Shown: piece by piece, positions 16,101-37,049 of the stretch
Position numbering within the stretch: the first letter of the stretch is position 1
Layout: each line of letters opens with the position of its first letter
Assembly: GCF_036010505.1 (NCBI RefSeq)
Contig: NZ_CP108569.1
Coordinates: forward strand, 7,518,001 to 7,582,000
Reading direction: 5' to 3'
DNA: 64,000 nucleotides
Source: Streptomyces sp. NBC_01197
GTDB taxonomy: Bacteria > Actinomycetota > Actinomycetes > Streptomycetales > Streptomycetaceae
The notes under the pieces: model-generated
The model's input: the letters and a program-made list of their open reading frames with translations, nothing else
Database searches by the model: none
Told to the model about the DNA's origin: nothing
Made by a program: the position numbers and the translations under genes

Positions 16101-16325
16101 ATCGCGGCCCAGGTCCTCGGCCTGGAGCACCTCGAAGCCGACGACGACCTCTTCGCGGCCGGCGCCGACTCGCTCACCGCGCTGCGTCTCGCGGGCCGTA
16201 TCCGCGCGGAGTTCGGAGTCGAGGTCGCCGTACGGGCGATCTTCCAGCACCGCGCCATAAGCCGGCTCGCCCGGCACCTGACGGCCCTCACCGGGCCGCG
16301 GTCCGCCGGACCCGACGCCCGCTGA
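10122..16325 (+). CDS. NRPS, terminal: C-A-T-E-C-T
   Basis: Last NRPS of the visible line, about 2067 residues. The GTG at 10122 overlaps the previous stop as GTGA. Domains are C (HHILLDGWS near 146), A ([11 protein letters not shown] near 617, NEYGPTE near 751), T (GGDSI near 1007), E (LPTPITHWL near 1063, HHLAVDGVS near 1194), C (LPLTPLQEG near 1556, HHILTDGWS near 1690) and a final carrier domain of different type ([10 protein letters not shown] near 2016). Hand alignment to PheA gives DLTKVGEVGK, which matches the classical asparagine code. The E domain then predicts D-Asn, possibly hydroxylated by the oxygenase encoded at 16707. The terminal C-T pair has no A domain and no thioesterase, so the last acceptor must be loaded in trans or the chain leaves by another enzyme. 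Confidence 0.96.
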
Positions 16326-16425
16326 GCGGACCGGCGCCGTACCGGACGCCGCGGTGACCCCACCCCCCTCACGACCACCTTTCCCTTGCACACGAACCGG
16401 TTCCCACCGACAGGAGAGCACAGCC

Positions 16426-16662
16426 ATGGAAAACCCCTTCGAGCGCGCAGACGGCACCTACCTGGTCCTGGCCAACGACGAGGGCCAGCACTCGCTGTGG
16501 CCCGCCTTCGTGGAGGTGCCCGCCGGCTGGGAGGTCGTGCACCCCGAGGCCGACCGGCAGGCCTGCCTCGACTACGTCAACGATCACTGGACCGACATGA
16601 GGCCCAAGAGCCTGGTGCGGGCCATGGAACAGGAGCAGGCGGACGCGGTCGCGTCCCGCTGA
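16426..16662 (+). CDS. MbtH-like NRPS accessory protein
   Basis: 78-residue protein that binds and activates or stabilises A domains of the assembly line. The family signature is visible: [10 protein letters not shown], then [20 protein letters not shown] and NDHWTDMRP. The ATG at 16426 follows CAGGAGAG, and the open frame upstream of it carries no similarity. It lies 100 bases after the last NRPS gene and 44 before the oxygenase gene, in the same direction, so it is probably part of the same operon. It is the only MbtH gene seen in the window. Confidence 0.95.
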
Positions 16663-16706
16663 ACGGGCCGCCGTATCCCCTCCGATCGCTATGAGGTGTG
16701 TGAAAG

Positions 16707-17729
16707 ATGCCCAGACTCGACATACCCGTCGAGTACTCGCTCGACGGTGACGACGTCGCCGCGCTGATGGAATGCGTCGAGCGGCTGAGGGATTCCGGTG
16801 GAGACCCAGCCAGCCCGGAGTTCTACGACCGGTTCTGGGACTCCGGCCACCGACTGCCGCCGGGCATGCGCTCGTTCCTGGACGGCTTCCGGCGTTCCGA
16901 GCGCTCGGCGTGCGCCCTGGTGCACGGCTTCCCGATCGACGAGACCGCCATCGGGCCCACGCCGTCGCACTGGGAGGCCGCCATCGGCGCCAAGTCGACA
17001 CGGGACCAGGAGATCTTCGTGGCGCTGTGCGGCATGGCGCTGGGCGAGCCGTTCGCCTGGGCGACCCTACAGTCGGGGCGGATCGTCCAGAACCTCCTGC
17101 CCATCCAGGGCGACGAGGAGTGCCAGAGCGGGTACGGCAGCGAGGCGCTGCTGGAGTTCCACACCGAGGACGGGTTCCACCCCGACCGGTGCGACTACCT
17201 GCTCCTGTTCGGGCTGCGCAACGACGACCGGGTGCCCACGATCATGGCGTCGGTGCGTGATCTGGAGCTGAGCGACGAGGACCGGCGGATCCTGGCCGAG
17301 CCGCGGTTCTACATCCTGCCCGACAACGAACACCTGAGGCAGCTGGAGGCACGCGACCCGAACCACCGGGCGCTGGCGAAGATGCGCCGGATGCAGCAGC
17401 AACCGGAGGCCACCGCCGTGCTGTTCGGCGACCGGCTCAACCCCTACCTGCGCATCGACCGGCCGTTCATGCGCATCGCCGGGGAGGACCGCGCGGCCGA
17501 GCACGCCCTGGACCGGCTCATGGCCGCACTGGAGAGCGTGCAGCAGGACGTGGTGGTCGGCCCCGGCACGCTGCTGGTGCTCGACAACTACCGGGCGGTG
17601 CACGGCCGCAGGGCCTTCCGCGCGCGGTACGACGGTACGGACCGCTGGCTGAAGCGCCTCACGGTCACCCGCAATCTGCGCCGGGGGCTCGTCAGCCGTG
17701 AGAGCGACAGCCACCGCGTCCTGCTCTGA
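16707..17729 (+). CDS. Fe(II)/2-oxoglutarate amino-acid beta-hydroxylase (AsnO/VioC type)
   Basis: 340-residue clavaminate-synthase-like dioxygenase of the group that hydroxylates free Asn, Arg or enduracididine at C3. The metal-binding HTED motif lies near residue 153, followed by the characteristic GFHPDRCDYLLLFGLRN. The distal histidine and the 2-oxoglutarate arginine lie in NYRAVHGRRAFRARYDGTD with RWLKRLTV. The overall pattern resembles VioC, AsnO and MppO. The preceding NRPS ends with an apparent Asn-specific A domain, so L-Asn to 3-hydroxy-Asn is the simplest guess. Arg-type substrates cannot be excluded, because residue-level substrate determinants were not checked. The spacing to the next gene is 15 bases. 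Confidence 0.88.
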   Translation: MPRLDIPVEYSLDGDDVAALMECVERLRDSGGDPASPEFYDRFWDSGHRLPPGMRSFLDGFRRSERSACALVHGFPIDETAIGPTPSHWEAAIGAKSTRDQEIFVALCGMALGEPFAWATLQSGRIVQNLLPIQGDEECQSGYGSEALLEFHTEDGFHPDRCDYLLLFGLRNDDRVPTIMASVRDLELSDEDRRILAEPRFYILPDNEHLRQLEARDPNHRALAKMRRMQQQPEATAVLFGDRLNPYLRIDRPFMRIAGEDRAAEHALDRLMAALESVQQDVVVGPGTLLVLDNYRAVHGRRAFRARYDGTDRWLKRLTVTRNLRRGLVSRESDSHRVLL

Positions 17730-17744
17730 GGGGGAGTTCCCGAC

Positions 17745-18485
17745 ATGCGAACAATCGTTGTCTCCGGTGCGTCCAGCGGCATCGGGAAAGCGACGGCCGA
17801 GCGGTTCCTCGGCTCCGGCGACTACGTCGTGAACCTGGACGCGGTCCCGCCGGAGGAGGCCGGCGGCCTGGACCGGCGGTGGATCGAGACCGACGTGGCC
17901 GACTGGGGCGCGGTGCGTGACGCCCTGGCGCGGGTGCACGACGAGCGTGGACGGCTGGACGTCGTCGTGGCCAACGCCGGCATCAGCAAGCGGCGCGGGG
18001 TGCTGGACCTCGCCGAGGAGGACGTGCGGCGGATCGTCGACGTGAACCTCCTCGGGGTGCTCGCCCTGTGGCGCCACGCCGCCGAGTACATGGTCCGCCA
18101 GGGCCACGGGGTCCTGCTGGCCACGGCGTCGGTCAACGGCTCGCGGGGATACCCGCTGTACGCCGACTACAACGCGACCAAGGCGGGTGTCGTGTCGCTG
18201 TGCCAGACGTTCGCCATGGAACTGAGCCCGCGGGTGCGCACCGCGTGCGTGACGCCGGGAGCGGTGCTCACGCCCATGCAACGGGCCGAGTACACCGACG
18301 AGATGCTGGCGGAGGTGAACGCGCGGATCCCGGCCCGCCGCCATGCCGCTCCCGAGGAGATCGCCGAGGCCTTCTTCTTCCTGGCCTCGGACGCGGCGGC
18401 GTTCGTGACCGGCCAGGAGTTCGTGATCGACGGGGGCGAGACGGCCGGTGCGACCACGGCCTTCTTCCCCGACACCAGGAGCTGA
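17745..18485 (+). CDS. Short-chain dehydrogenase/reductase
   Basis: 246-residue classical SDR. It has the N-terminal cofactor motif GASSGIG, NAGIS after the fourth strand, a serine in TASVNGS and the catalytic YNATK (Tyr about 142, Lys about 146). The GGGGAG site lies 8 bases before the ATG. The stop is 2 bases before the P450 ATG. It probably oxidises or reduces a hydroxyl or keto group on the peptide or a building block, for example the product of the neighbouring hydroxylase or P450. The substrate cannot be read from the sequence. Confidence 0.9.
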   Translation: MRTIVVSGASSGIGKATAERFLGSGDYVVNLDAVPPEEAGGLDRRWIETDVADWGAVRDALARVHDERGRLDVVVANAGISKRRGVLDLAEEDVRRIVDVNLLGVLALWRHAAEYMVRQGHGVLLATASVNGSRGYPLYADYNATKAGVVSLCQTFAMELSPRVRTACVTPGAVLTPMQRAEYTDEMLAEVNARIPARRHAAPEEIAEAFFFLASDAAAFVTGQEFVIDGGETAGATTAFFPDTRS

Positions 18486-18487
18486 AC

Positions 18488-19732
18488 ATGATCAACCGTC
18501 CGCTGCTCGACCCCGGCGCCCTGGAGGGCGTCGATCTCGCCGATCCGCGACTGCACGCCGAATACGACCTCACCGAGGTGTGGCGGCACCTGCGCGACAC
18601 CGCGCCCGTCCACCGCCACCCCGCGACCCGGCGCGGCGACGGCTTCTGGGTGATCACCCGCTACGACGACGTGGCGACCGTCTACAAGGACGGCCGGCTG
18701 TTCTCGTCCGAGCGGGGCAACGTCCTCGACACCCTGCTGGCGGGCGGTGACTCCGCCGGCGGCCGGATGCTGGCCGTCACCGACGGAGCCCATCACACGG
18801 CGCTGCGCTCCGTACTCAACAAGCACTTCACCCCCCGTGCGCTGGAGGTCATCGTCGACAGCCTTCGCACGGCCACCTGGAAGCTCATTGAGGACGCCGT
18901 CGCCAAGGGCGAGGGCGACTTCGCCGCCGACGTCGCCGCCAACATCCCGCTGGCGGCCATCTGCGACCTGCTGGGCGTGCCGCAGTCCGACCGCGCCCAC
19001 ATCCTGTCGCTCACTCCGTCCGCCCTCGCCTCCTCCGACGGCGCCCCCACGGAGGAAGGCACCTGGAGCGCGAAGAACGAACTGCTGCTCTACTTCTCCG
19101 AACTGGCCGCATCACGCCGCGCCAAGCCCTACGACGACGTGGTGAGCCTGCTGGTCACCAGTGAGGTTGGCGAGCGCCCACTGAGCCACGAGGAGATCAT
19201 CTTCAACTGCTACAGCATCATCATGGGGGGCAACGAGACGACCAGGTTCGCCATGATCGGCGGTCTGCTCGAACTCATGCGCAACCCCGAGCAGTGGCAG
19301 GCGCTCAAGAGCGGGCAGGTCAGCCTGGAGACCGCCATCGAGGAGATACTGCGCTACACCACGCCCAGCCTGCACTCGGGCCGCACCTCGACCGAGGACT
19401 GCTTCCTGGGCGGCGAGTTCATCGAGGCCGGCGACATCGTCACCGTCTGGAACGCGTCGGCCAACCGTGACGAGCGGCAGTTCCCCGACCCCGACCGGTT
19501 CGACCTGGCGAGGACGCCGAACAAGCATCTGACGTTCGCCTACGGCCCTCACTTCTGCATCGGTGCCTACCTGGCCCGGGCGGAACTGAACGCCGTGTTC
19601 GGCGGGTTGCGCGCCATGGCCGCCGACATGTGGCTGACCGGCGAGCCGCGACGGATCTACGCCAACTTCCTCAGCGGATTCGCCACCCTTCCGGTGTCCT
19701 TCACCCCGGACCCCTCCTTCACCGGTGCCTGA
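18488..19732 (+). CDS. Cytochrome P450
   Basis: 414-residue soluble bacterial P450. Visible motifs are the I-helix GGNETTR, the K-helix EEILR (ExxR), and the heme loop FAYGPHFCIGAYLARAEL with the cysteine ligand. The ATG at 18488 follows the SDR stop by 2 bases; an upstream extension of the frame overlaps the SDR gene and is not credible. Its 3' end overlaps the next gene by 8 bases, so the SDR, P450 and phosphopantetheinyl transferase genes are translationally linked. It is likely a tailoring hydroxylase acting on a carrier-bound amino acid or on the peptide. No redox partner is encoded nearby. Confidence 0.94.
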   Translation: MINRPLLDPGALEGVDLADPRLHAEYDLTEVWRHLRDTAPVHRHPATRRGDGFWVITRYDDVATVYKDGRLFSSERGNVLDTLLAGGDSAGGRMLAVTDGAHHTALRSVLNKHFTPRALEVIVDSLRTATWKLIEDAVAKGEGDFAADVAANIPLAAICDLLGVPQSDRAHILSLTPSALASSDGAPTEEGTWSAKNELLLYFSELAASRRAKPYDDVVSLLVTSEVGERPLSHEEIIFNCYSIIMGGNETTRFAMIGGLLELMRNPEQWQALKSGQVSLETAIEEILRYTTPSLHSGRTSTEDCFLGGEFIEAGDIVTVWNASANRDERQFPDPDRFDLARTPNKHLTFAYGPHFCIGAYLARAELNAVFGGLRAMAADMWLTGEPRRIYANFLSGFATLPVSFTPDPSFTGA

Positions 19733-20417
19733 CACCGGGGCGCCCGCGGGCCGGGCCGGGGGACTGCGCGGCCTGGTGCCCGCCCGGGTGGCGGTCCAGG
19801 AGACGTACGAGGACCTCGACGACGGCACCGGGCTCTTTCCCGAGGAGAGGGAAGCGGTGGCCGGAGTGGTGGACGAACGCCGCCGCGAGTTCAGCACCGT
19901 ACGCGTCTGCGCCCGCCGCGCGCTGGCAGAGCTCGGTGTTCCCGCCGTCCCGCTGCTGCCCGGACCCGGGGGAGCACCGCGCTGGCCGACCGGGGTGACC
20001 GGCAGCATGACGCACTGCGCCGGTTACCGGGCCGGCGTGGTGGCCCGGCTGCGGGACGCCTCGGCGCTGGGCATCGACGCCGAGCCGCACGAGGCGCTGC
20101 CGCCGCTCGTCGCGGACCGGATCACCTCGCCGACGGAGCGGAACCGGGCGCGGCTGCTGCGGGACCAGTCACCCCACGTGCACTGGGACCGGCTGATGTT
20201 CTGTGCCAAGGAGAGCGTCTTCAAGGCACTCCACGTGCTGACCGGGCACTCGGTCGGGTTCACCGACAGCGACATCACGCTGCGCACGGACGGCACCTTC
20301 ACCGCAGGCCTCGGCGATCCCCTTCCCGTGCGGGGCGGCGACCCGATCGCCCGCTGCGACGGCCGCTGGACGGTACAGGGGAGCTACCTGCTGGCGGCCG
20401 TCGTCGTACCCGGGTGA
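19725..20417 (+). CDS. Sfp/EntD-type 4'-phosphopantetheinyl transferase
   Basis: 230-residue enzyme that converts apo carrier domains to holo form using coenzyme A. EntD/Sfp motifs are present: GVTGSMTHCAGYRAGVVA, the Mg-binding LGIDAEPHE, and WDRLMFCAKESVFKAL. The GTG at 19725 overlaps the P450 gene by 8 bases. It is a dedicated activator for the carrier domains and the free-standing ACP of this cluster. Confidence 0.92.
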   Translation: MPDTGAPAGRAGGLRGLVPARVAVQETYEDLDDGTGLFPEEREAVAGVVDERRREFSTVRVCARRALAELGVPAVPLLPGPGGAPRWPTGVTGSMTHCAGYRAGVVARLRDASALGIDAEPHEALPPLVADRITSPTERNRARLLRDQSPHVHWDRLMFCAKESVFKALHVLTGHSVGFTDSDITLRTDGTFTAGLGDPLPVRGGDPIARCDGRWTVQGSYLLAAVVVPG

Positions 20418-20648
20418 GCGGTGCCGGGCGCGGGCCGTCTCCGGCACTTCCTGCGGACCGGTGCGAGTTGCCGGGCACTTGCCTGGAGTGCGGCAACCGG
20501 CCCCAGGCATGATGCGACCGCGCCGCCACCGAGGTCCGCCCCACCGGGCCGCAGTCGGCACCGGCCGGACATCAGCCGCCATGCGTCGATCCGACGAACG
20601 CCGGCCTTCTTCCCCGCTCGGGCCACCTGACGCGAAAGGGACACGTTC

Positions 20649-21908
20649 ATGCCCACGCCCTCCGAGAGTGTCGCCATCACCGGTCTGGGTGCCATCAGCC
20701 CACTCGGCGGGGATGTGGGCACCACCTGGTCCGGTCTGCTGGACGGACGTAGCGCCGTACGGGCGCTGGACGACGACTGGGCCGCCGCACTGCCGGTGCG
20801 CATCGCGGCCAGGGCCGCGGTGGAGCCGGCCGGGATGTTCAGCCGGGTCGACGCCAGGCGGCTCGACCGCTCCAGCCAGTTCGCGCTCATCGCCCTGCGC
20901 GAGGCATGGGCGGACGCCGGGTTCACCGGCCCCGCCGGCACCCACGGGGCACCTCCCGGTGACCGGGTCGGCGTCGTCGTGGGCAGCGGGCTGGGCGGGT
21001 TGTCCACCCTGCTGCACAACTACGACGTCCTCAACAGCCGTGGCGCGCGCGGCGTCTCGCCGTTCGCCCTGCCCATGCTGATGGCCAACAGCCCGGCGGC
21101 GCAGGTCAGTATGGAGATCGGGGCGCAGGCCGCCGTGCACGCGCCGACCAGCGCGTGTGCCGCCGGCGCGGAGGCGGTGGCGGCCGGTCTGGACCTGATC
21201 CGCCTCGGACGGGCCGACGTGGTCGTCGTCGGAGGAGCCGAGGCGATCATCAACCCGCTGACCATCGCGGGCTTCGCCAGCATGACCGCCCTGTCGTGCC
21301 ACAACGAGGAGCCGCACCGCGCCTCCAGGCCGTTCGACAAGAAGCGCGACGGCTTCGTGATCGCCGAGGGCGCGGCCATGCTGGTCCTGGAGTCGATGCC
21401 GCACGCGCGAGCACGCGGCGCCCGTGTCTACGGTGAGCTGGCCGGAGCGGGCGTGAGCGCCGACGCCCATCACATCGCCCGCCAGGAGCCCAGCGGGCGG
21501 TCGATGGCCCGCGCCCTGCGCAGCGCGCTCGACGACGCCGGCCTGGGCACGCCGGACGTGGCGCACGTGAACGCGCACGCCACCTCCACGCCGGGCGGGG
21601 ACCTGGTGGAGAGCCGGGCCATCTCGTCGGTGTTCGGCCCGCGGGCCACCCCGGTGTCCGCGATCAAGTCCATGACCGGCCACCTGATCGGAGCCTCCGG
21701 CGCGCTGGCCGCGGTCTCCAGCGTCCTGACAGTGCACCACCGCCTCGCCCCTCCGACGATCAACGTGGAGGATCCGGACGACGCCGTGGAACTGGACGTC
21801 GTCCGGGACGTGCCCCGCGCACTGCCCGCCGGACAGGTCGCCGCCGTGAGCAACTCCTCGGGATTCGGCGGGCACAACGTCGTCCTGGCCTTCCGCACCG
21901 CCTCATGA
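20649..21908 (+). CDS. Stand-alone beta-ketoacyl synthase (KAS II/FabF-like)
   Basis: 419-residue condensing enzyme with a complete Cys-His-His triad: cysteine near 170 in [11 protein letters not shown], histidine in [11 protein letters not shown], and [13 protein letters not shown]. The start is an ATG preceded by GCGAAAGGG. It is not fused to any PKS domain, and no acyltransferase, ketoreductase or FabH lies nearby. It could make a lipid starter, or it could condense a carrier-bound chain with the hydroxymalonyl-ACP predicted from the cassette at 25316-28694. The sequence does not decide between these. The 231 bases upstream may hold a separate promoter. Confidence 0.9.
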
Positions 21909-21981
21909 TCCCGGTCCCCAGCCTTTCCTGTTCCCCTTCCCCCTTGCAAGAGTTCCGACCTACCGAAAAACGAGGAAGACG

Positions 21982-22353
21982 ATGCGCCGGACCATGATGA
22001 AGTCCAAGATCCACCGGGCCACGGTCACCCAGGCCGACCTCAACTACGTGGGCTCGCTCACGCTGGACCCGGTTCTCATGGAGGAGGCGGACCTCCTCGT
22101 CGGCGAACTGGTCCACATCGTGGACGTCAACAACGGCGCACGGCTGGAGACCTACGTCATCGAGGGCGAGCGCGGCTCGGGCGTCGTCTGCATCAACGGG
22201 GCCGCCGCCCGGCTGATCCAGCCCGGGGACATCGTCATCATCATCGCCTACGCGTCCGTCGAGGACGAGGAAGCGGCCAAGCTGGAGCCGCGCGTGGTGT
22301 TCGTCAACGGCGAGAACGGGATCGTCAGCGTGGGGAGCGACCCCTCCGTCTGA
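21982..22353 (+). CDS. panD: Aspartate 1-decarboxylase (PanD)
   Basis: 123-residue pyruvoyl enzyme making beta-alanine from L-aspartate. The self-cleavage site is Gly24-Ser25 in NYVGSLTLD, and the flanks ([39 protein letters not shown]) are typical. The second start-like ATG at 21994 is less likely, because the family begins at this Met. PanD normally serves pantothenate synthesis next to panBC. Here it sits alone in an NRPS cluster, so it probably supplies beta-alanine or a related beta-amino acid to the product, or boosts CoA supply. It converges with the kinase gene with only 9 bases between. Confidence 0.93.
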
Positions 22354-22362
22354 TCCCGTCCG

Positions 22363-23601
22363 TCACACGGGCAGTTCCAGCAGGACCCGGAACCCCTCCC
22401 CGGTGGGACCGGCGTCGAGCGTGCCGCCGAGGATCTCGGCCCGCTCGCGCATGCCCCGGAGGCCGTAACCGGGGCCGCTCACCGCGGCCTCGGCCGGCGG
22501 CGTCGAGATGCCGGACCCGGCGTCGCGGGCCCGGTCGTCTCCGGGCGCGCGGTCCACGACCTCCAGCCGAACGGTGTCCCGCTCGTACTCCAGGCGGATC
22601 GTCACGCCGTGTCCCCGGGCGTACTTGCGGATGTTGGTGAGCGCCTCCTGGGCCACCCGCCGTACGGCGTGCGACGCCTCCCCGCCGAGCGGACGGGGTT
22701 CGCCCTCCACACAGACCTCGGCCCCGAGTTCGCCGCCCATATCGGCCAGCGTCGAGGCGATCGGCAGCTGTTCGCCGCGCAGGGCGGACAGCGCCTGCCG
22801 GGATTCGACCAGCCCCTCCTGCGCCATCCGGCGCGCGTTCACCACGAGCTCCGTCACCTCGCCGGCGTCGGCCCCGCGCTCCAGCAGCAGCCGAGCCGTC
22901 TCCAGATGCATCAACTGAGCGGACAGGCTGTGCGCCAGCACGTCGTGGATCTCGCGGGCGATCCGCGCGCGTTCGTTCAGCGCCGCGGACTCCGCCTGCG
23001 CGTCGCGCGCGATCTGCTCGGCCGCCCGCGCCGCCCGCTCCTGGGCGAGCAGACGCCACACGGCAGCCCGCGCCTCTCGGTCCTGTCGGCTCAGGCAACC
23101 GACGAGCAGACACGCCCCGGCGAGCAGCGAGAAGACATGCCAGCCCCGGCCTGCCTCGGCGAGCACCAGCGCGGCATCGGCGGCACCCGTGTAGGCGACG
23201 GCCAGCCATACGGGCGCCAGGTGCGTCATGGACACGATGGGCACACACAGCAGCCCCACCGCCAGCAACTCCGAACCCAGCAGCTGGGCTACGGCCACGC
23301 ACGCCGCCAGTACGGCCAGCGCGCTCGCGACCGGCAACAGCCGCCGTTTCAGGGCCATTTGGCGGGCGGCCACGGACGTGGCCAGTATCAGCACGATCAG
23401 CCCGGACAACGCCACCCGGCGCAGGGGGGCAGCGGACCCACCAGGGACCTTGACGATGGCCACCACCAGGACGAGCGCCAGCAGCACCGCCCGCACCCAG
23501 CCCCCGACCCGCCGGACATGGGCGCTGGCGGACCGGTGGACCGCGTCGGCCGCGGGCCAGTCCGTCCATACATGTCGTCGCGTCGCGGGCATGTCCGGCA
23601 T
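22363..23601 (-). CDS. NarL-group sensor histidine kinase (orphan)
   Basis: 412-residue membrane sensor. The N-terminal about 170 residues hold several hydrophobic segments. The HisKA_3 box (ARIAREIHDVLAHSL, phospho-His near 220) and the ATPase lobe (AQEALTNIRKYA, GYGLRGMRERAE) follow. Such kinases normally pair with a LuxR-type response regulator in the same operon, but none is adjacent. The gene is 72 bases downstream of the exporter gene on the same strand, so it may sense the exported product or envelope stress. Confidence 0.9.
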   Translation of the reverse strand: MPDMPATRRHVWTDWPAADAVHRSASAHVRRVGGWVRAVLLALVLVVAIVKVPGGSAAPLRRVALSGLIVLILATSVAARQMALKRRLLPVASALAVLAACVAVAQLLGSELLAVGLLCVPIVSMTHLAPVWLAVAYTGAADAALVLAEAGRGWHVFSLLAGACLLVGCLSRQDREARAAVWRLLAQERAARAAEQIARDAQAESAALNERARIAREIHDVLAHSLSAQLMHLETARLLLERGADAGEVTELVVNARRMAQEGLVESRQALSALRGEQLPIASTLADMGGELGAEVCVEGEPRPLGGEASHAVRRVAQEALTNIRKYARGHGVTIRLEYERDTVRLEVVDRAPGDDRARDAGSGISTPPAEAAVSGPGYGLRGMRERAEILGGTLDAGPTGEGFRVLLELPV

Positions 23602-23673
23602 CTCTCCGTCGTCCTTCCCTCTGGCAGCCGACGACAGACGCCGTCATGCCGTCCTTCTCGAGGGGCAGGATGC

Positions 23674-24993
23674 CTACCCGTGCGTCCCGCTGGACGCGGT
23701 CCCGGCGCCGCGGGCCTCGCCATCGGCAGGCCCTGTGAGTTCCACGACGTCCTCGAGCGGAATGTCCAGCACGCCGAGCGACCGGCTCCTGTGAAGGACC
23801 ACCGCCAAGGCTAGCATCGCAATCATCAGCGTCAGGACGGCGCCGGGCACGCCGAACAGGTCGGCGCACAAGCCGGCGACCAGCGGACCCGTCCACTGCA
23901 GGCATTGCATCCCGAAGCGGGTCACGGCCGCCACCCGCCCGCTGAACTCGTCCGGTACCAGCCGGGCTTCGTAGGACTCCAGCACGACGTTGAGGGGGAC
24001 GGTCGCCACCATGGCGATCAGCAGGACGGCGCCGATCTGCCAGGGGCGGGGTACCGCGGCGACGGCGGCGAAGGACTCGACGAAGAGCCACATGGCGATG
24101 ACGACGACGGTCTTCGCCCGCAGCCTCCTCATGATCCGCGGTGTGACGACCGCGCCGACGACGCCGCCCACGAGTGCCGCCGCGTTCACCGACCCCACTG
24201 CGGTCGGACCGCCGCCGCGGTACTTGACCAGAGCGATGAGCAGCAGCAGAAAGCCCTGCGTGACCGCGTTGAGGAAGGCGCCCCACACGACGGTGAAGCG
24301 CAGGTAGGGGTGGTGCCACACCATCCGTCCGCCTGCGGCCAGACCGCCGAACAGGCCCTGGCGGCCGGTTTCGGAGGGGTCCGGACCCAGCGGCCTGCGG
24401 ATGAGGGCGACGCCCACCGCGGCGCACACGTACGACACCGCGTCCGCGAGGAACGGCAGCCAGCGGGCCGTGGCGAACAGCAGCCCGCCCAGCGGCGACC
24501 CGATGAGCTGGGCGACCAAGTCCCGTCCCATGCCCTGCGCGGTGGCCGCTCCCACCTGCTCCCTGGGGACGATACGGCGCAGGGCCGGAGTCGCCGCTCC
24601 CATGGTCAGGCCGGAGGCCAGGCCGCTGAACAGGGCGCAGGCCACCAACGAGAGCAGCGGGGCGCCGCCGCGGTGCACCAGCCACGCCGCCACCGCCAGC
24701 GCGACCGCCTGGACCAGTGGCCCGCAGATCATGATGGCCCGGCGCGACATCCGGTCGGTGAGCGCGCCCCCGACCAGCGTCATCGTGACGGAGCCGAGCA
24801 GGTTGGCGGCACTGATGCTTCCCGCCTGGGCCGCGGAGCCGGTGGCGTAGAGGGCGTAGAGCGGAAAGGCGATGGAGGAGACGCTGCTGCCGAGCGTCGA
24901 CAGTCCGGTTCCGGCCCACCAGACCATGTAGTCGCGGTTCTGCCACAGCGACGGGGGGCTGTCCGAGGACGGTCGGTGCTCCAGCTGTGCCAT
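23674..24993 (-). CDS. MFS efflux transporter (EntS-like)
   Basis: 439-residue major facilitator protein with about 12 hydrophobic segments. It has the loop 2-3 motif GGALTDRMSRRAIM, and its overall pattern is like the enterobactin-exporter/MFS_3 group. It probably exports the peptide and may give self-resistance. It is transcribed away from the hydroxymalonyl cassette, sharing a 322-base divergent intergenic region, with the sensor kinase gene downstream. Confidence 0.88.
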   Translation of the reverse strand: MAQLEHRPSSDSPPSLWQNRDYMVWWAGTGLSTLGSSVSSIAFPLYALYATGSAAQAGSISAANLLGSVTMTLVGGALTDRMSRRAIMICGPLVQAVALAVAAWLVHRGGAPLLSLVACALFSGLASGLTMGAATPALRRIVPREQVGAATAQGMGRDLVAQLIGSPLGGLLFATARWLPFLADAVSYVCAAVGVALIRRPLGPDPSETGRQGLFGGLAAGGRMVWHHPYLRFTVVWGAFLNAVTQGFLLLLIALVKYRGGGPTAVGSVNAAALVGGVVGAVVTPRIMRRLRAKTVVVIAMWLFVESFAAVAAVPRPWQIGAVLLIAMVATVPLNVVLESYEARLVPDEFSGRVAAVTRFGMQCLQWTGPLVAGLCADLFGVPGAVLTLMIAMLALAVVLHRSRSLGVLDIPLEDVVELTGPADGEARGAGTASSGTHG

Positions 24994-25315
24994 GCCGGCG
25001 ATGCTGCCCGGCCCGGATCATGCGGGCCAGGCAACGAACCGGCATCACCGACGGGATCGGGCGCCGGTCCAGTTGCCGCATTGTTGCCTGGAGCGACACG
25101 GGGCCCGCTGACAGGATTCCGGCGTGAGAGTGCCTCGGGGCCCTGCGGCCGACAGCGAGGCACTGGCGCGGGAGCGTGGGGCCCCGATTGTCCGGGGCCC
25201 CACACCGGCCCACCGACCGGTGGTCCGGATCGCCCCGCGTATGACGCCCGAAGCCGGGTCGGCCCTCCCCACCTCCCTCTCCGGGGGCCGGGATCCACGA
25301 GGAGTGTGAAGAGAC
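24994..25315. promoter_or_regulatory. Divergent intergenic region with inverted repeat
   Basis: 322 bases between the exporter gene (-) and the 3-hydroxyacyl-CoA dehydrogenase gene (+), expected to hold both promoters. A perfect 11-base inverted repeat with a 6-base loop (GTGGGGCCCCG / CGGGGCCCCAC) lies at 25176-25203. It could be an operator or an attenuator-like hairpin. No clear -10/-35 could be assigned. Confidence 0.55.
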
Positions 25316-26173
<858 letters not shown>

Positions 26174-26203
26174 CGACCGAGATCGACTTAAGGACGGACG
26201 ATT

Positions 26204-26464
26204 GTGACTACCGAGCAGCCGGACGGCATCCGTGAAGAGGTCCGACAGTACCTGGCCGGACACCTCGGCCGGCAGGTGCCCGACGACGAGAACATCTTCG
26301 CCGTGGGGCTGGTCAACTCGCTGTTCGCGGTGCAGCTGGTGACCTATGTGGAGCGGCAGTTCGGCGTCGTGGTCGAGACGGACGAGCTCGACCTCCGCAA
26401 CTTCTGCTCCGTCGACGCCGTCACCGGCTACGTCGCCGGCAAGACCGCCTCCGCGGTCGGATGA
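26204..26464 (+). CDS. Acyl carrier protein for hydroxymalonyl unit (FkbJ-like)
   Basis: 86-residue free-standing ACP with a GTG start after AAGGACG. The phosphopantetheine serine lies in GLVNSLFAVQLV, a motif typical of methoxymalonyl/hydroxymalonyl ACPs rather than the DSL of PKS or fatty-acid ACPs. It should carry the glyceryl group loaded by the FkbH protein and the oxidised products. It would be activated by the phosphopantetheinyl transferase at 19725. Confidence 0.92.
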   Translation: MTTEQPDGIREEVRQYLAGHLGRQVPDDENIFAVGLVNSLFAVQLVTYVERQFGVVVETDELDLRNFCSVDAVTGYVAGKTASAVG

Positions 26465-26471
26465 GGCAGCA

Positions 26472-27623
26472 GTGCGACTGACATTCACCACGGAACAGCG
26501 CGCGCTGCGTGCGGAGTTCCACGCGTTCGCGAAGTCGGAGGTCGCACCGGAGGCCGCCCGGCACGACTGCGAGGAGCGGGTGGGGCGCGCCCTGATCGAC
26601 CGCCTCGCGGAAGTTGGTTTCCTGGCCTCGCTGATCTCCCCGGCCCACGGCGGGCGCGGCCTGGACCACCTCGGTTACGGGTTGCTGCACGAGGAGATGG
26701 GCCGGGCGTGCTCCAGCACCCGCAGCCTGCTGACGGTGCATGACATGGTGGCGCACACCGTGGAGCGGTGGGGCGACGACACCCAGCGTCGCACCTGGCT
26801 GCCCCGGCTGACCGCGGGCACGGCGATCGGCGCGTTCGCCCTGAGCGAGCCCGACGCCGGCAGCGACGTGGCCGCGCTCGCCACGCGCGCCACCGCCGAC
26901 GGCGACGCATACCGGCTCGACGGCACCAAGTGCTGGATCAGCTTCGGTGCCATCGCCGATGTCTTCCTCGTGTTCGCCCGCGCCGACGAGGGACTCACCG
27001 CTTTCCTCGTCGAACGGGACACCCCGGGCCTGGAGGTCGTACCACTGGCGGGCATGCTCGGCACCCGCGGCGCGATGCTCGCCGAGCTGCGCCTCACGGG
27101 ATGCCGCGTGCCGAGGGCGAACCTGCTCGCCGGACCCGGACGCGCCCATCCGTTCATCGTCACGGAGGCACTGACCCTGGGACGCTACAGCGTGGCCAGC
27201 GGCAGCATCGGCATCGCGGGCGGCTGCCTGGCCGAAAGCCGGGACCACGTCGCCGAACGCGGACTCATGGAGCACCAGCTCGTCCAGCGCCTGCTCACGC
27301 GCATGACCGTGCACTACGAGGCCGGGCGGCTGTTGACGTTCCAGGCCGGCGAGCTGATCTGGGAGCGCCACGCGGACGCGTCCATGGCGGCGATCAAGGC
27401 CAAGTACCTCGCGGCGACGAACGCCGCGGAGGCGGCACACGACGCGGTGCAGGTGCACGGGGCCGCCGGATGCACGCCCAACCACCCGGTGAACCGGTAT
27501 TACCGGGATGCCAAGGTCATGGAAATCATCGAAGGCAGCACCGAGGTGTGCGAAGGCCTCATCGGCCGTTTCGGACACGCGGATGTCGAGTCGTACGGCG
27601 CGGCCTCGCCGAAGACGTACTGA
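26472..27623 (+). CDS. Acyl-CoA dehydrogenase family protein (FkbI-like)
   Basis: 383-residue FAD flavoprotein. The GTG at 26472 has GAGGCAG just upstream, within the end of the ACP gene; the open frame extends further 5' but only through the ACP gene. Family motifs are present: FALSEPDAGSD, GTKCWISFG, QVHGAAG and the C-terminal RYYRDAKVMEIIEGSTEV. In the cassette it carries out the second oxidation on the ACP-bound unit toward hydroxymalonyl-ACP. Confidence 0.92.
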   Translation: MRLTFTTEQRALRAEFHAFAKSEVAPEAARHDCEERVGRALIDRLAEVGFLASLISPAHGGRGLDHLGYGLLHEEMGRACSSTRSLLTVHDMVAHTVERWGDDTQRRTWLPRLTAGTAIGAFALSEPDAGSDVAALATRATADGDAYRLDGTKCWISFGAIADVFLVFARADEGLTAFLVERDTPGLEVVPLAGMLGTRGAMLAELRLTGCRVPRANLLAGPGRAHPFIVTEALTLGRYSVASGSIGIAGGCLAESRDHVAERGLMEHQLVQRLLTRMTVHYEAGRLLTFQAGELIWERHADASMAAIKAKYLAATNAAEAAHDAVQVHGAAGCTPNHPVNRYYRDAKVMEIIEGSTEVCEGLIGRFGHADVESYGAASPKTY

Positions 27624-27638
27624 GGAAAGGGCGGAGCA

Positions 27639-28694
27639 ATGCGGAACGCCGATGAGGACGTGGCAGAGCGCCCCATGGTCAAGTGCGTGGTCTGGGACCT
27701 GGACAACACACTGTGGAAGGGGGTGCTCCTGGAGGACCCCCAGGTCGTGCTGCGCGAGGACGTGGCGGAGGTGATCAGAGTGCTCGACTCCCGCGGCATC
27801 CTCCAGTCGATCGCCAGCCGCAACGACGAGACGGTGGCCATGGGCCGCCTGAAGGAGGCCGGCCTCGACGAGTACTTCCTCGCGCCGCAGATCGGCTGGA
27901 ACGCCAAGTCGGCGTCGGTCTCCCGGATCGCCGAGGAACTCAACATCGGCCTGGACACGTTCCTGTTCGTCGACGACGACGCGTTCGAACGCGCGGAGGT
28001 CGGTGATGTGCTGCCCCAGGTGCGCACCGTCGACGCGGTGGAGGCCGCGGCGCTCGCGGAGCGGGCCGACCTGACGCCGCGGGACCTGACCCCGGAGGCC
28101 GGGCGCCGGCGCTCGATGTATCAGGCTCAGTTGCGGCGGGCCCAGGCGGAGGAGTCGTTCGCCGGCCCCGCCGAGAGCTTCCTCGCCACGCTCGACCTGC
28201 GCCTGGTGCTGCGTCACGCGGGGCCGGGCGACCTGCGCCGGGCCGAGGAGCTGACCGTGCGCACCAACCAGCTCAATGCGACGGGTTACACCTACGACGC
28301 CTCCGAGCTGGAGGCGTTTCGCACCTCGCCCGATCACGACCTGCTGGTGGCCGAGCTGTCCGACCGCTTCGGTGACTACGGCACCATCGGCGTGATGCTG
28401 GTCGAGCGGGCCGCACAGGTGTGGACCCTGAAGCTGCTGCTGATCTCCTGCCGCGTGATGTCCCGCGGAGTCGGCGCGGTGCTCCTGGGCCGGCTGGCCG
28501 CCCGCGCCAAGGACAAGGGCGTGACACTGCGGGGGGAGTTCGTCCCGAGCGGCCGCAACCGGGCCATGCTGATCACCTACCGGTTCGCGGGCTTCGACGT
28601 CGTCTCCGAGTCCGCGGACCGTACCGTCTTCGAGTACCGCTCCGACACGGTTCCCCAGGTGCCCGACTACCTGCACCTCGCCTCGGACATCTAG
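27639..28694 (+). CDS. FkbH-like glyceryl-ACP synthase (HAD superfamily)
   Basis: 351-residue protein that transfers the D-glyceryl group of 1,3-bisphosphoglycerate to the ACP and removes phosphate. The HAD nucleophile motif DLDNTLWKG is at about residue 16, and FLFVDDDAFER is the second acidic motif. The GNAT-like C-terminal part has FGDYGTIGVM and SCRVMSRGVG, both typical of FkbH. It completes a four-gene route to hydroxymalonyl-ACP. The usual O-methyltransferase (FkbG type) is absent, so the unit would stay hydroxylated unless the FkbM protein downstream acts on it. Confidence 0.93.
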   Translation: MRNADEDVAERPMVKCVVWDLDNTLWKGVLLEDPQVVLREDVAEVIRVLDSRGILQSIASRNDETVAMGRLKEAGLDEYFLAPQIGWNAKSASVSRIAEELNIGLDTFLFVDDDAFERAEVGDVLPQVRTVDAVEAAALAERADLTPRDLTPEAGRRRSMYQAQLRRAQAEESFAGPAESFLATLDLRLVLRHAGPGDLRRAEELTVRTNQLNATGYTYDASELEAFRTSPDHDLLVAELSDRFGDYGTIGVMLVERAAQVWTLKLLLISCRVMSRGVGAVLLGRLAARAKDKGVTLRGEFVPSGRNRAMLITYRFAGFDVVSESADRTVFEYRSDTVPQVPDYLHLASDI

Positions 28695-28850: not shown

Positions 28851-28890
28851 GACGGCCGGCCGGCCAGGTCGCCCCGTCCGGCCGGCCGTC
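28851..28890. terminator. Bidirectional terminator hairpin
   Basis: Perfect 13-base stem GACGGCCGGCCGG / CCGGCCGGCCGTC with a 14-base loop. It lies between the convergent FkbH-like and FkbM-like genes, where a terminator for both strands is expected. There is no U-tract, as is common in Streptomyces. Confidence 0.7.
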
Positions 28891-28909
28891 GCCGCTCTCT
28901 CCCGCGGTC

Positions 28910-30004
28910 CTACAGCGGCAGGCTGTCGACCATCACGAGCGCGTCCGGCAGCGGGTGCCCGGGCAGCCGCCCGCGCAGCCAGTCGAGCAGCTCCGCCTCC
29001 TGGTGCGCGGTGCCCCCGTTGCGCAGGTGATCGGCGACCACCGGACGCGGATCGTCGGCGTACTCGGGCCGGATCGCCGTCAGGGTGTGCCGGTCCGTTC
29101 CAGTGAGGAGTTCGTCCTGCACCGCCCAGGTCGTGAACCCGTGCTTCTCCAGGAGCGAGACCACTTCCGTCAGACGCCCCTCGGTCTCCGAGCCCGTGCT
29201 GTCGTGGACCTCCATGGCGATCTGCCGCACGAGCGGCCAGTGCTGCTCGTCCAGGCCGTGCAGGACGTCCAGCTCGGCCCGCTGGACGTCGACCTTCAGC
29301 AGGTCGATCCGCTCGACGCCCTGCTCGTCGATGACCTCGGACAGCCGCCTGAGCCGGGCCGGCTCCTCGGTGGTCCGGAAGAGGGCGGGGGCGTACTCGT
29401 CGAAGTGGTCGATGAGTTCGTCCCGGGCCTTGGCGAGTCCCTGGTTGCGCTCGTTGAGCAGGTACGTCTTCATGACGTCCGCCTCGGCCTGCGGGTCGGA
29501 GTAGTCCTGCAGGCCCGACATCCAGGAGTTGCCGGGATAGAACGCGAAGCTGACCTCGGCCTCCCGGTCGGCCAGACCGTGCCGGAAGACGTGGACGCGG
29601 TCGCCCGCCAGCGCGGCGTTGCGCTCCAGCAGGCGGTGCACCGGGGCCAGCGGCTCGAAGGCGTAGAGCGTGGCGCTCGGGCAGTTCTCGCGCACGAAAA
29701 GTGAGAACATGCCGATGTTGGCACCGACGTCGAACACGACGGCGTCCTCGCGCAATGTCACCCCGCCCCGCATGTAGGAGCGTTGGACGAAGATCTCGTC
29801 GTACAGGTACTGGGTTTCGTGCTGGTTGACGCCCTGGACCTGGTCCAGGGCGAAGGAGCGGGGTCCGGACTCGCTGGGCACCACGTAGCAGACGGTGCGG
29901 GGCCGGGGGCCCGTGTCGTCGACGCGGACCGCAGCCCCCCTCACCGCAGGGTGTTCGAGCACGGCGGCACGGACGTCGTCCTGTGGGCTCATCGTGTGTT
30001 CCAT
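28910..30004 (-). CDS. FkbM methyltransferase flanked by NRPS A-domain remnants
   Basis: About 364 residues from the ATG at 30004; a Met 4 codons later, or a start 30 codons upstream, is also possible. The middle is an SAM-dependent FkbM methyltransferase: VVFDVGANIGMFSLFV (motif I), AFEPLAPVHRLLERN, and DLLKVDVQRAELDVLHGL. The first about 40 residues (VRAAVLEHPAVRGAAVRV, CYVVP) match the A8-A9 part of an NRPS A domain. The last about 30 (ELLDWLRGRLP, VMVDSLPL) match the LPxYMVP-FVVLDxLPL stretch. NRPS methyltransferase domains are inserted exactly between these two pieces, so this looks like a domain released from an A domain. Target unknown. Confidence 0.85.
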   Translation of the reverse strand: MEHTMSPQDDVRAAVLEHPAVRGAAVRVDDTGPRPRTVCYVVPSESGPRSFALDQVQGVNQHETQYLYDEIFVQRSYMRGGVTLREDAVVFDVGANIGMFSLFVRENCPSATLYAFEPLAPVHRLLERNAALAGDRVHVFRHGLADREAEVSFAFYPGNSWMSGLQDYSDPQAEADVMKTYLLNERNQGLAKARDELIDHFDEYAPALFRTTEEPARLRRLSEVIDEQGVERIDLLKVDVQRAELDVLHGLDEQHWPLVRQIAMEVHDSTGSETEGRLTEVVSLLEKHGFTTWAVQDELLTGTDRHTLTAIRPEYADDPRPVVADHLRNGGTAHQEAELLDWLRGRLPGHPLPDALVMVDSLPL

Positions 30005-30126
30005 TCGGCGGTCCAGTAGGAGTGGAACCTCATGCTCGGGCCGCCGAGGGCCCTCTCTCCAGGCAGCGGAGCGGCAACTGAACGGCAGGTTCATGTGCCG
30101 CAGGTCCGTGGGACGGCGCGCTGTGC

Positions 30127-31341
30127 TCAGACCGGTACCGCGACGGGCCTGGCGGCGAGATCGCTGACGTACTCGTTGACATACTCACGGATCAACGTGG
30201 GTACGCGATAGACGTACTCGTGGCCGCGGCGCACCTGGACGACGGAGTTGTCGACGAGTTCGGCCAGCACCTTGATGTTGTCGGCCGGGCTGTCGTCGGC
30301 GCCGGAGTCGAAACCCGTCACGTCCTCGATGGTGAACGGGTTCTGGATGGCGGCCAGATGGTGCAGCAGGGTGCGTTGGGAGAGGTTCAGCAGGTCGTAG
30401 CTCCACTTGGCGGCGCTCGACAGGGGGCGATGACGGGAGAGGCTGCCCAGGCTGATCTGGTCGAGGATCGGCAGGAGGGGAGCCTCTTGGAGCAGCGTGT
30501 TCAGCGACACCGACCTCAAGCGGTGCGCGGCCACCTCTATGGCCAGCGGCATCGCGTCCAGCCGCGTACACAACGTTGTCACGGCGGGGAGGCGGTCGGT
30601 GATGTCGAGGGTGGGGACGCTGGTGTGCGCCCGGATCAGGAAGAGTTCCACCGCGGGCGAGTGCCCTGTGCCGGACGGGCTGTCCACGGGGAGCGGTGCC
30701 ACCTCCCAGGAGGTCGCGGACATCAATGCGAGCGGCCGGCGGGAGGTCACGATGATGTCCAGGCCCGGATGCTCATGCAGCAGTCGCTGTGACACCTCGG
30801 TCACGGCCTTGAGGACATGCTCGGCATTGTCGATGACGAGGAGCATGCGAAACTCCGTCGTCTGCCAGGCCGGCGAGCACGACATACGGGTCTTCACCGC
30901 CTCGGTCACCGCCGTCAACGCCTCGCGCTCCCGGTCCCGTTCCGGCAGCAGCGAGCCCAGTTCGACCACGGCGACGCCGTCGCGGTACATCCGCTGTAAC
31001 TGGGCTGCCGAGGCAAGGGCCAGGCGGGTCTTGCCCACACCGCCGGACCCGGTCAGCACGAGCAGGCGACTGCTCTTCACCGCGGCGCACATGTGCCGCA
31101 GATCGTCCTGCCGGCCCACCAGGACGTCAGTTTGCGGGCGGATACCCAGCCACGGAACGGTACTGGAGGGGCTGTCTAACTCTCCGGCAGGGACGTCGGC
31201 GCCGTTGAGGACGGTATGGTGCGCCGCCATGGCGGCCTCGGAAGGGAGAGGGAGAGGCAGTGACGACAGCGGCCGGGGGGCTGTCTGCAGGGCCTTGAGA
31301 ATCAGTTCGACGGTGGCTCTTCGCGGGTTTCTGTTGGTAGC
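30127..31341 (-). pseudogene. XRE/STAND-ATPase regulator, 3' part, split by IS630
   Basis: Encodes a P-loop STAND ATPase (COG3903 type): Walker A LTGSGGVGKTRLA, Walker B LLVIDNAEH, a sensor-like VTSRRPLAL, and a winged-helix/linker tail. An ATG at 31230 could still give 367 residues, but the frame stays open upstream to the IS end at 31343. Across the IS it continues in frame into an XRE helix-turn-helix (32511-32628). The ancestral protein would be about 444 residues. Such regulators often control nearby secondary-metabolite genes. The remaining fragment lacks its DNA-binding domain, so normal function is unlikely. Confidence 0.85.
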
Positions 31342-31375
31342 TACTGAGGTTGAACTCGGGATGTCGTGCTGATGG

Positions 31376-32047
31376 TCAGGCGGGGCGGATGGTCAGGCCG
31401 GTCTCGGTGAGACAGCCGTCGATGAGGTGGCTGCGGTACTGGATGTGCCGCAGGCCGCGCCGGACGGTCTGGACGAGGTGTTCGGGGGTGCTGAAGGCGA
31501 CGTTCGAGAGCCATCCGCGCCGTAGGAGTGACCAGATGCCCTCGACGGGGTTGAGGTCGGGTGCGTAGGGCGGCAGGTAGTAGATGGTCAGCCAGTCGCG
31601 GGTTTCGGCGAACTCTCTCAGGCCGGCTGCTTTGTGGACGTTGAGGTTGTCCCAGATGAGCACGATGGGGCCGTCGAGCTGCTGGTGGGCGGAGATCAGC
31701 AGGTCGCGGTAGTCGCGCCAGGAGAAGCTCTTGCGCCCGTCACGGTTGCCGTCGTCGCGGCGGGGCCGGTAGACCAGCCTCGACCGGTGGCCGGGTTTGT
31801 AGCAGGTCAGCGCTGCGATGGATATGCGCCTGCGGGAACGGCCGCGGACGCGGACCACCGGGGTGCGGCCGCGTGGCGACCATGTCTTTGCGTGCGGCGG
31901 CGTCATGGAGAAGCCGGCTTCGTCTTCGAAGACGAGCCAGGCTCCATGGGCCGCCGCGAGCCTTCCGCGCAGGGCCACACCTCCTTGACCCACCCCGCGA
32001 CCGCGTCGTCGTCCCGCTCCATCGCTCTGCGGGCCGGTACCTGGCAA
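31376..32047 (-). CDS. IS630 transposase, DDE catalytic frame
   Basis: Carries the complete DDE triad: FEDEAGF, LIWDNLNVH, and LNPVEGIW, with the family-typical YYLPPYAPDLNP. The meaningful part starts about residue 28 (LAAAHGAWLVFEDE); sequence before that is read in the wrong frame. It is downstream of, and overlaps, the N-terminal frame. Confidence 0.88.
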   Translation of the reverse strand: MPGTGPQSDGAGRRRGRGVGQGGVALRGRLAAAHGAWLVFEDEAGFSMTPPHAKTWSPRGRTPVVRVRGRSRRRISIAALTCYKPGHRSRLVYRPRRDDGNRDGRKSFSWRDYRDLLISAHQQLDGPIVLIWDNLNVHKAAGLREFAETRDWLTIYYLPPYAPDLNPVEGIWSLLRRGWLSNVAFSTPEHLVQTVRRGLRHIQYRSHLIDGCLTETGLTIRPA

Positions 32048-32442
32048 GACCAGCCGTTGCGCACCAGCAGCTTGCGCACGCCCTGGATCGTGTATGTCAG
32101 GTGAAAGCGTCGGCCGATCACCGTCGTGACCCGGGCAAGCGTCCAGCGCTGGTCCTGCCAGCCATGCGCGGCCGGGCCTTTGGCCAGCTCCGCTTCAAGC
32201 TGCGTGAACTGCTGATCGCTCAGTTTCGGCAGCGACGCTGGCCCCTGCGACCGCAAGGATCGCGGGCCGCCCTCGGCCCACGCGTGACGCCATCGCTGGA
32301 CCGAGCGGACACTGACCCGCAGATCTCTGGCGATCGCTGTACTACCCTCGCCCAGGGCGAACCGCTCGGCCGCCTTGAGCCGTAACTCTTCGCGAAACTG
32401 CTGTCGTTCGGCGGTCAGCCCGCCCCCTTGTGGATACCGCAT
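31903..32442 (-). CDS. IS630 transposase, N-terminal frame
   Basis: 179 residues with the tandem helix-turn-helix region (AIARDLRVSVRSVQRWRHAW) and the linker WTLARVTTVIGRRFHLTYT. The frame runs out after VKEVWPCAEG. The protein continues in the overlapping frame at LAAAHGAWLVFEDE, so a one-base frame change near 31975 joins the halves. Whether this is programmed frameshifting, as in some IS630 elements, or an inactivating mutation cannot be told here. Confidence 0.85.
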   Translation of the reverse strand: MRYPQGGGLTAERQQFREELRLKAAERFALGEGSTAIARDLRVSVRSVQRWRHAWAEGGPRSLRSQGPASLPKLSDQQFTQLEAELAKGPAAHGWQDQRWTLARVTTVIGRRFHLTYTIQGVRKLLVRNGWSCQVPARRAMERDDDAVAGWVKEVWPCAEGSRRPMEPGSSSKTKPASP

Positions 32443-32510
32443 GACTCCGGTGATACCGCAGCCACCGACCAGTCGTCACCCCTTACGACACCACGAGTTC
32501 AGCCTCAGTA

Positions 32511-32628
32511 ACTCCAGGTTGCGAATGGTTCTGACACTGACTCCGGAGCGCTCCGCCAGTGCCTCTTGACTCCAGCCTGCGGCTCTGCGGGCTGTCGCGA
32601 TGACAACATGGAGTCTATTTATTTCCAT
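32511..32628 (-). pseudogene. XRE/STAND regulator, 5' part (HTH)
   Basis: Begins at the ATG at 32628 and encodes MEINRLHVVIATARRAAGWS followed by QEALAERSGVSVRTIRNLE, a textbook XRE helix-turn-helix. The frame then meets the IS630 end. Joined to 31341 through a single TA it reads on as LATNRNPRRATVELILKAL, the usual next helix of this domain. Confidence 0.88.
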
Positions 32629-33603
32629 CTGCTATTCCCCGTTTCGTGGTCTAGCCGGAATTTGCGGTTTCCCGGTTCAACACAACGTTTCTTTCTGGAG
32701 GAGCAGGCGACGCCACCAATGTGTCCCGTACGGCGGAAATTCATCCCCCGACGGCAAACTGACGGGGTGATTTCGGCGGCTTGGGGTGTAGATGTCCGTT
32801 ACACGGTATGGGCCATGGATTCAGTGAACCGCCGAGGACTGGGCGGTTCCGATTTCCGGCCCTGTCGCCTATGTCTGCGTGAAGGACCGACGATCAGAAG
32901 AGCAGCAAGTGCTCGGTAGTGCGGCCAGGCCGTCCGCAAAAGGTCGCAAAAAAACCGGTCGCGCGCATTGTTTCCCCCAGTTAGTCATTGGCGGCGCGGG
33001 GATCGCCCGACGCCGGAACCGGACCAGGGCCCACGCTAAGGCTCACTTTGATCGCAAAGCAAGGAGATTAGTGTAGTCGTTCGATTACGTGGGGTGACAG
33101 GAAAGAGCCTTCTCCAGGTCAGGTCCACTTTTGTCGCGGCCTGCACCTAGCCAGTCGACCGCCTTGGCTTTGCGTGACATTGCCACAGGCTTGTCGACAG
33201 ATTTACCTTCCGGCAGTGCTGTCTGAGGTTGCCGGCCCGTAGCCGGGCCGCCCGACGGGGGGCGGGCGACCCGGTTCCGAGGGCAGGAAGCGGCCGACGC
33301 ACTCATTCGTCCTCTGATGGTGCGCTACTTTTCGGACGCTCCTTTTCGGCCCCTCACCACGTGAACCGCGGCCCTTCGAGGTTAGGGGAGGGCGGCATGG
33401 GCGCGCCTCCACCCCGGGGTGGAGAAGATCTTCTCCACCCCGGGGTGGAGAAGATCTGGAACCAGGGTTGGAAAAAACGCTGTGTGGCAAGGAAGGGCAG
33501 GCGAGATCGCTGCCTTATTGGATAACCTGCTCCTCACCGTCGCGGCTTTGCGCACAGCGGGTCCGCGGCCGGACGCGAAGAAAAAACCTAGGAGGTTCCG
33601 CGC
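32629..33603. other. Non-coding region upstream of the broken regulator
   Basis: 975 bases with no convincing gene on either strand and visibly lower GC than the surroundings between about 32600 and 33100. It should contain the promoter of the disrupted regulator and, at the right, the 44-bp palindrome (33407-33450) and the ribosome-binding site AGGAGG of the membrane-protein gene. Confidence 0.6.
33407..33450. repeat. 44-bp perfect palindrome
   Basis: Two copies of the 18-base palindrome CTCCACCCCGGGGTGGAG joined by the 8-base palindrome AAGATCTT. The whole 44 bases equal their own reverse complement. A partial third linker (AAGATCT) follows. It lies 150 bases before a small membrane-protein gene. 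Candidate tandem operator, hairpin terminator or recombination site. Confidence 0.9.
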
Positions 33604-37000: not shown

Positions 37001-37049
37001 TAACAAAGGCGTTGGACGTGGCGGTGTGTGATGAGGCAGGTGGCGAGGC

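What the first reader, a model, noticed from the sequence alone, without database searches (positions are those of the whole stretch)
30127..32628. IS630 has inactivated a cluster-adjacent XRE/STAND-ATPase regulator; excision restores the frame
Removing 31344-32508 plus one TA joins an XRE helix-turn-helix starting at 32628 to the ATPase frame with no stop: 40 + 37 + 367 codons. The flanking TA duplication is intact, so the insertion is probably recent. If this regulator controls the NRPS cluster, the IS could explain a silent or deregulated cluster.
Basis: seen in the sequence. Interest (0 to 1): 0.72.

Follow-up and report, generated by a model that had tools for sequence, protein, structure and literature searches.

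The report
Jumping gene broke a cluster regulator
A mobile DNA element has recently split a switch-like regulator gene at the edge of a peptide-making gene cluster in a Streptomyces, while relatives still carry the gene whole, so this strain is a natural knockout in which control of the cluster can be studied.

Summary
An IS630-family element (31344-32508, 1165 bp, TA on both sides) splits a minus-strand gene into 40 codons and 37+367 codons. Two natural unoccupied sites prove the insertion: a linear plasmid of Streptomyces sp. NBC_01766 carries both flanks (0 of 655 and 4 of 641 bases differ) joined by a single TA, in frame; an unnamed relative (G146) has a 444-codon orthologue at the same place in the same cluster. 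The five complete IS copies in this genome differ by 0-2 bases, so the insertion is recent. The gene belongs to a clade of short XRE + NB-ARC/STAND proteins without a C-terminal sensor. Leaving out the two focal genomes, 15 of 23 assessable members have NRPS-like DNA within about 10 kb, against 1 of 20 longer relatives. Loss of DNA binding is near certain, because the cut falls inside the helix-turn-helix. Control of the NRPS cluster is likely but not shown, nor its sign; a polar effect on the co-directional fkbM gene is a real alternative. An IS in a regulator gene is a known kind of event; the little-studied regulator clade and the clean natural null allele are what is useful.

The parts
32509..32628 (-). 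5' fragment of the regulator: 40 codons of an XRE helix-turn-helix (start ATG at 32628)
   Evidence: HTH_3 34.2 bits, cut-off 23; identical in plasmid L042; aligned with G146
31231..31341 (-). 37 codons between the IS and the ATPase start (rest of the HTH, linker)
30127..31230 (-). 367-aa ATPase ORF, NB-ARC/STAND core plus winged helix
31344..32508 (-). IS630-family element, 1165 bp
   Evidence: 5 complete copies in the genome differing by 0-2 bases
31342..31343 (.). TA target duplication, one side
32509..32510 (.). TA target duplication, other side
31903..32442 (-). IS ORF with HTH domains (HTH_33, HTH_23, HTH_29)
31376..32047 (-). IS ORF with DDE_3 transposase domain, in another frame
28910..30094 (-). 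FkbM-family methyltransferase gene, same strand, 32 bases after the regulator's stop codon: possible operon partner
32629..33603 (.). Region upstream of the regulator, shared with the plasmid and G146; intact in the window
14..28694 (.). Rest of the NRPS cluster in the window (NRPS genes, MbtH, VioC/AsnO-type hydroxylase, SDR, P450, PPTase, KAS II, PanD, histidine kinase, MFS, FkbH set)

Best explanation
An IS630-family element recently transposed into a TA at codons 40-41 of a cluster-situated XRE-NB-ARC regulator, making a null allele. Shown: the insertion, the open frame of the unoccupied site, an intact orthologue in a syntenic cluster, and the recency. Inferred: the intact protein binds DNA through its N-terminal XRE domain, gated by ADP/ATP exchange in the NB-ARC module (an XRE counterpart of the SARP + NB-ARC regulators), and sets transcription of the NRPS cluster. 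The cut severs the third from the fourth helix of the DNA-binding domain. What remains is a 50-residue stub and at most an ATPase without a DNA-binding domain, so the cluster loses the only DNA-binding regulator recognised in it. If that was an activator, the cluster is lowered or silent; if a repressor, it is released.
For: Unoccupied sites; 8 of 391 other genomes of the genus searched have a close orthologue and all 8 are uninterrupted; IS copies 0-2 differences; no difference to the plasmid copy in the coding bases compared (120 + 655, the TA counted twice); dN/dS 0.30, within the 0.09-0.38 of 11 cluster genes; HTH helices by model 3-17, 21-28, 32-40, 48-63, insertion after residue 40 (register); NRPS match of at least 1 kb near 15 of 23 clade members against 1 of 20 longer relatives; no other DNA-binding domain among the cluster proteins scanned.
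Against: No expression or binding data. 8 of the 23 clade members lack NRPS nearby, among them L058 and L059, which with L057 are the nearest group to the G000/G146 pair in the tree. In G000 and G146 themselves the NRPS genes lie about 14 kb from the regulator. Five of the 15 linked loci have only 1.0-1.6 kb of NRPS match, which may be a single enzyme or a cut contig. The window's lineage shows more unique residues than G146 (26 against 7, P0025 22), so some decay before the insertion is possible; the test is unrooted.
Confidence: 0.7

Rival explanations
1. The main consequence is polar: the IS separates fkbM, and the ATPase piece, from the promoter in front of the regulator. The phenotype would be loss or change of one methylation step with little change in cluster transcription.
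For: fkbM starts 32 bases after the regulator's stop on the same strand, and the arrangement is kept in G146.
Against: The transposase ORFs read toward fkbM and no terminator-like site was found at 28700-33700, so transcription may pass; fkbM may have its own promoter.
Confidence: 0.15
2. The 367-aa ATPase piece is still made and acts, for example by sequestering a partner, so the allele is not simply null.
For: The frame is open with an ATG and the Walker A motif is intact; transcription could enter from the transposase.
Against: No ribosome-binding site is evident by eye before 31230; every one of the eight close orthologues found is longer than the ATPase alone.
Confidence: 0.07
3. The regulator has no role in this cluster: it is a neighbour at its edge, and the insertion is a neutral event in a changeable chromosome arm.
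For: Edge position; an inverted-repeat boundary about 4 kb outboard; a plasmid that keeps this gene's remnant without the cluster; 8 of 23 clade members without NRPS nearby.
Against: Same neighbours in G146; homologues lie inside related clusters of G160, G218, G076, G057, G360 and L062; purifying selection until lately.
Confidence: 0.08

Closest known systems
Medium-sized SARP regulators (SARP + NB-ARC, about 600 aa; CpkO and FdmR1 named in the passage read of PMC10972967)
   Same: DNA-binding head plus NB-ARC switch, no TPR sensor, gene in a biosynthetic cluster
   Different: XRE head instead of SARP; 444 aa; no function shown
AfsR of S. coelicolor (passages of PMC10936776)
   Same: A STAND module gates a DNA-binding head; ATP binding relieves the inhibition
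   Different: AfsR has SARP and TPR domains; in AfsR the isolated head is more active than the whole protein, whereas here the head itself is cut
CED-4 (PDB 2a5y_C and others)
   Different: Eukaryotic apoptosis protein; its N-terminal CARD (recalled) is not XRE; shared fold shows no shared function
IS630 family
   Same: TA duplication, short inverted repeats, HTH + DDE_3 transposase; related copies at about 85-95% identity in other Streptomyces
   Different: Nothing unusual seen; the transposase is split over two frames in the complete copies

Membership tests
IS630 family | TA target duplication | tested here: met
   5 of 5 complete copies lie between TA and TA, and unoccupied sites have one TA (L042)
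IS630 family | Terminal inverted repeats | tested here: met
   CTGAGGTTGAACTCG / CTGAGGCTGAACTCG, 14 of 15
IS630 family | HTH + DDE_3-type transposase | tested here: met
   DDE_3 92.2 bits, HTH_33 75.2 bits; catalytic residues were not checked by a tool
NB-ARC / STAND ATPases | Curated Pfam match | tested here: inconclusive
   nSTAND1, AAA_22 and AAA_16 all below their cut-offs for the window piece and for G146
NB-ARC / STAND ATPases | Walker A motif and NBD-helical-winged-helix fold | tested here: met
XRE (HTH_3) DNA-binding proteins | HTH_3 domain | tested here: met
   34.2 bits for the 40-residue window piece, 40.8 for G146, cut-off 23
SARP regulators | OmpR-type DNA-binding domain plus BTAD | tested here: not met
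   Neither is among the Pfam matches of the G146 orthologue at E <= 0.001
Pathway-specific (cluster-situated) regulator | Gene lies within the cluster, kept in relatives | tested here: met
   Syntenic in G146; inside related clusters in six further genomes or loci
Pathway-specific (cluster-situated) regulator | Controls transcription of the cluster | not testable with these tools
   Needs expression and binding data

The most novel reading that the evidence does not exclude
The broken gene belongs to an uncharacterised actinobacterial clade of sensorless, CED-4-like XRE-NB-ARC switches recruited mainly to NRPS clusters. They would be triggered by a partner protein or pathway molecule acting directly on the nucleotide-binding core, and would assemble as ATP-bound oligomers on cluster promoters. 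This strain would be a natural null mutant of such a switch.
Probability: 0.3. Interest if true: 0.6.

Novelty: new member of a known kind. Interest (0 to 1): 0.4.

Why it matters
Many Streptomyces clusters are silent for unknown reasons. Here one datable event removes the only DNA-binding regulator recognised in a cluster, and a matched intact cluster exists in a relative, so cause and effect can be compared. It also points to a clade of short XRE-NB-ARC proteins often near NRPS genes; in the listings of my nine paper searches (open-licence papers only) I saw no functional study of such a protein. If the link to NRPS genes holds, the clade could serve as a marker of peptide clusters and a handle on them.

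Tried and rejected
Frame break at the joint: not found; two natural unoccupied sites read through. ATPase-only form at this locus in relatives: none among the eight close orthologues. P0052, the window's own 367-aa form, stands for 7 member sequences on 3 contigs, the longest 7,662,149 bases, longer than this chromosome; so the interrupted form may occur in other assemblies, whose origin is not shown.

Sequence search of solved structures with the G146 orthologue gave nothing at E <= 0.001. The sigma-70 and terminator scan of 28700-33700 found 0 and 0, so no promoter is claimed. A search for a shared operator motif was considered and not made.

Linkage count: the Fisher values counted G000 and G146 (or, other sets) as linked and are discarded, because in those two genomes the NRPS genes lie about 14 kb away; one search gives the count without them (15 of 23 against 1 of 20, p 7.6e-5; 14 of 22 without L062, nearly the same as G057). 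At a stricter 3 kb of NRPS match the figures are 10 of 23 and 0 of 20 (read off). The 20 controls were picked by hand from the ranked list, open frames over 700 aa; not every ranked hit was examined. Rows are not independent and the NRPS probe was the window's own NRPS. The unrooted relative-rate result (26, 7, 22) is kept as inconclusive.

The NCBIfam name 'guanitoxin GntD' for 16707-17729 (391 bits, cut-off 345) is taken as over-reach within the VioC/AsnO-type hydroxylases (recalled grouping). The product of the cluster was not identified.

Full report
Observation. The element at 31344-32508 has inverted repeats CTGAGGTTGAACTCG / CTGAGGCTGAACTCG, TA on both sides, and two transposase ORFs (HTH part and DDE_3 part) on the minus strand. 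Five complete copies exist in the genome, each between TA and TA; three are identical, one differs from these at 1 base and one at 2 of 1165. That marks recent activity.

Proof of insertion. Two natural unoccupied sites were found. First, linear plasmid NZ_CP109119.1 of Streptomyces sp. NBC_01766 carries window 30689-31343 (655 of 655 bases) and 32509-33149 (637 of 641, the four differences upstream of the gene), overlapping by one TA, and the ORF runs through the site. Of window 15400-31343 nothing but this stretch was matched on that plasmid, and its copy is cut at the 3' end beside an IS3 transposase gene, so it is a remnant. A further intact orthologue of 443 aa is in the protein database (P0025; 226 of 262 residues identical to the plasmid form). 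Of 391 other genomes of the genus searched (drawn from a larger group), 8 have a close orthologue at E <= 1e-75, and all 8 are uninterrupted.

Why it probably belongs to the cluster. From about C1:7505684 to the regulator there are an aminotransferase, an AurF-like protein, a TauD protein, a condensation protein, an acyl-CoA dehydrogenase and an AMP-binding protein, then in the window NRPS genes, MbtH, a VioC/AsnO-type hydroxylase, SDR, P450, PPTase, KAS II, PanD, a histidine kinase, MFS, an FkbH set and FkbM. No other DNA-binding regulator was seen among the proteins scanned. Leaving out G000 and G146, 15 of 23 assessable clade members have at least 1 kb of NRPS match within the fetched flanks of about 10 kb, against 1 of 20 longer relatives (Fisher p 7.6e-5, rows not independent). 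Five of the 15 have only 1.0-1.6 kb of match; at 3 kb it is 10 of 23 against 0 of 20. In G160, G218, G076, G057, G360 and L062 the homologue sits between homologues of the hydroxylase and SDR genes on one side and of the PPTase and MFS genes on the other. Against the link: eight members have no NRPS nearby, among them L058 and L059, of the group nearest to the G000/G146 pair.

How it works. Shown: the structure of the locus and the event. Inferred, by analogy with AfsR and the medium SARPs (passages of PMC10936776 and PMC10972967): an ATP-dependent switch that gates a DNA-binding head. In AfsR the isolated head is more active than the whole protein; here the cut is inside the head, so a freed active head is not expected and loss of function is. 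Whether the cluster is thereby silenced or released cannot be told from sequence. The transposase ORFs read toward the ATPase piece and fkbM and no terminator-like site was found, so polarity on fkbM, 32 bases after the regulator's stop, may be absent, partial or full.

Age and selection. Against the never-occupied plasmid site no coding base compared differs (120 + 655, the TA counted twice). dN/dS against G146 is 0.30 for the ATPase piece and 0.09-0.38 for 11 cluster genes, so the gene was under purifying selection for most of that time. Unique residues among the window, G146 and P0025 are 26, 7 and 22; without a root this does not settle whether the window's lineage was already decaying.

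Setting. From 36626 on the window is identical to the reversed left chromosome arm for the 13,205 bases compared, and other IS remnants mirror too, so a terminal inverted repeat of about 73.2 kb is likely. Its inner edge lies inside a truncated copy of the same IS630. The broken regulator is about 4 kb inboard of that edge.

Verdict. A well-founded observation of an ordinary kind of event, with an unusually clean natural control and a little-studied regulator type. Interest 0.4.

Noticed in passing
window 35655-37000: A second XRE-type gene is fused in frame to the tail of a truncated copy of the same IS630 (36626-37000), giving a 437-aa chimeric ORF exactly where the likely terminal inverted repeat begins.
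   Followed up: partly
window 36626-49830: Identical over 13,205 bases to the reversed left chromosome arm (C1:60000-73204); mirrored coordinates suggest an inverted repeat of about 73.2 kb whose inner edge lies inside an IS630 copy.
   Followed up: partly
window 33404-33453: Two copies of the palindrome CTCCACCCCGGGGTGGAG upstream of the 33604 gene, found nowhere else in this genome at up to 2 mismatches, and present in the plasmid and in G146: operator-like, function unknown.
   Followed up: partly
L042 13295-13456 (between window 33148 and 33149): The plasmid has about 162 extra bases with inverted ends and TA on both sides, like a small non-autonomous element.
   Followed up: no
L061:8828-9241: Beside another clade member, a small exported-looking protein with repeats of DANPGGNLNWDG-type units: possible peptide precursor.
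   Followed up: no
window 31376-32442: The IS transposase is split over two overlapping frames; the only differences among the five complete copies are at two positions, so a programmed frameshift is possible.
   Followed up: no
window 22363-23601: A histidine kinase gene in the cluster with no response regulator among the proteins scanned.
   Followed up: no
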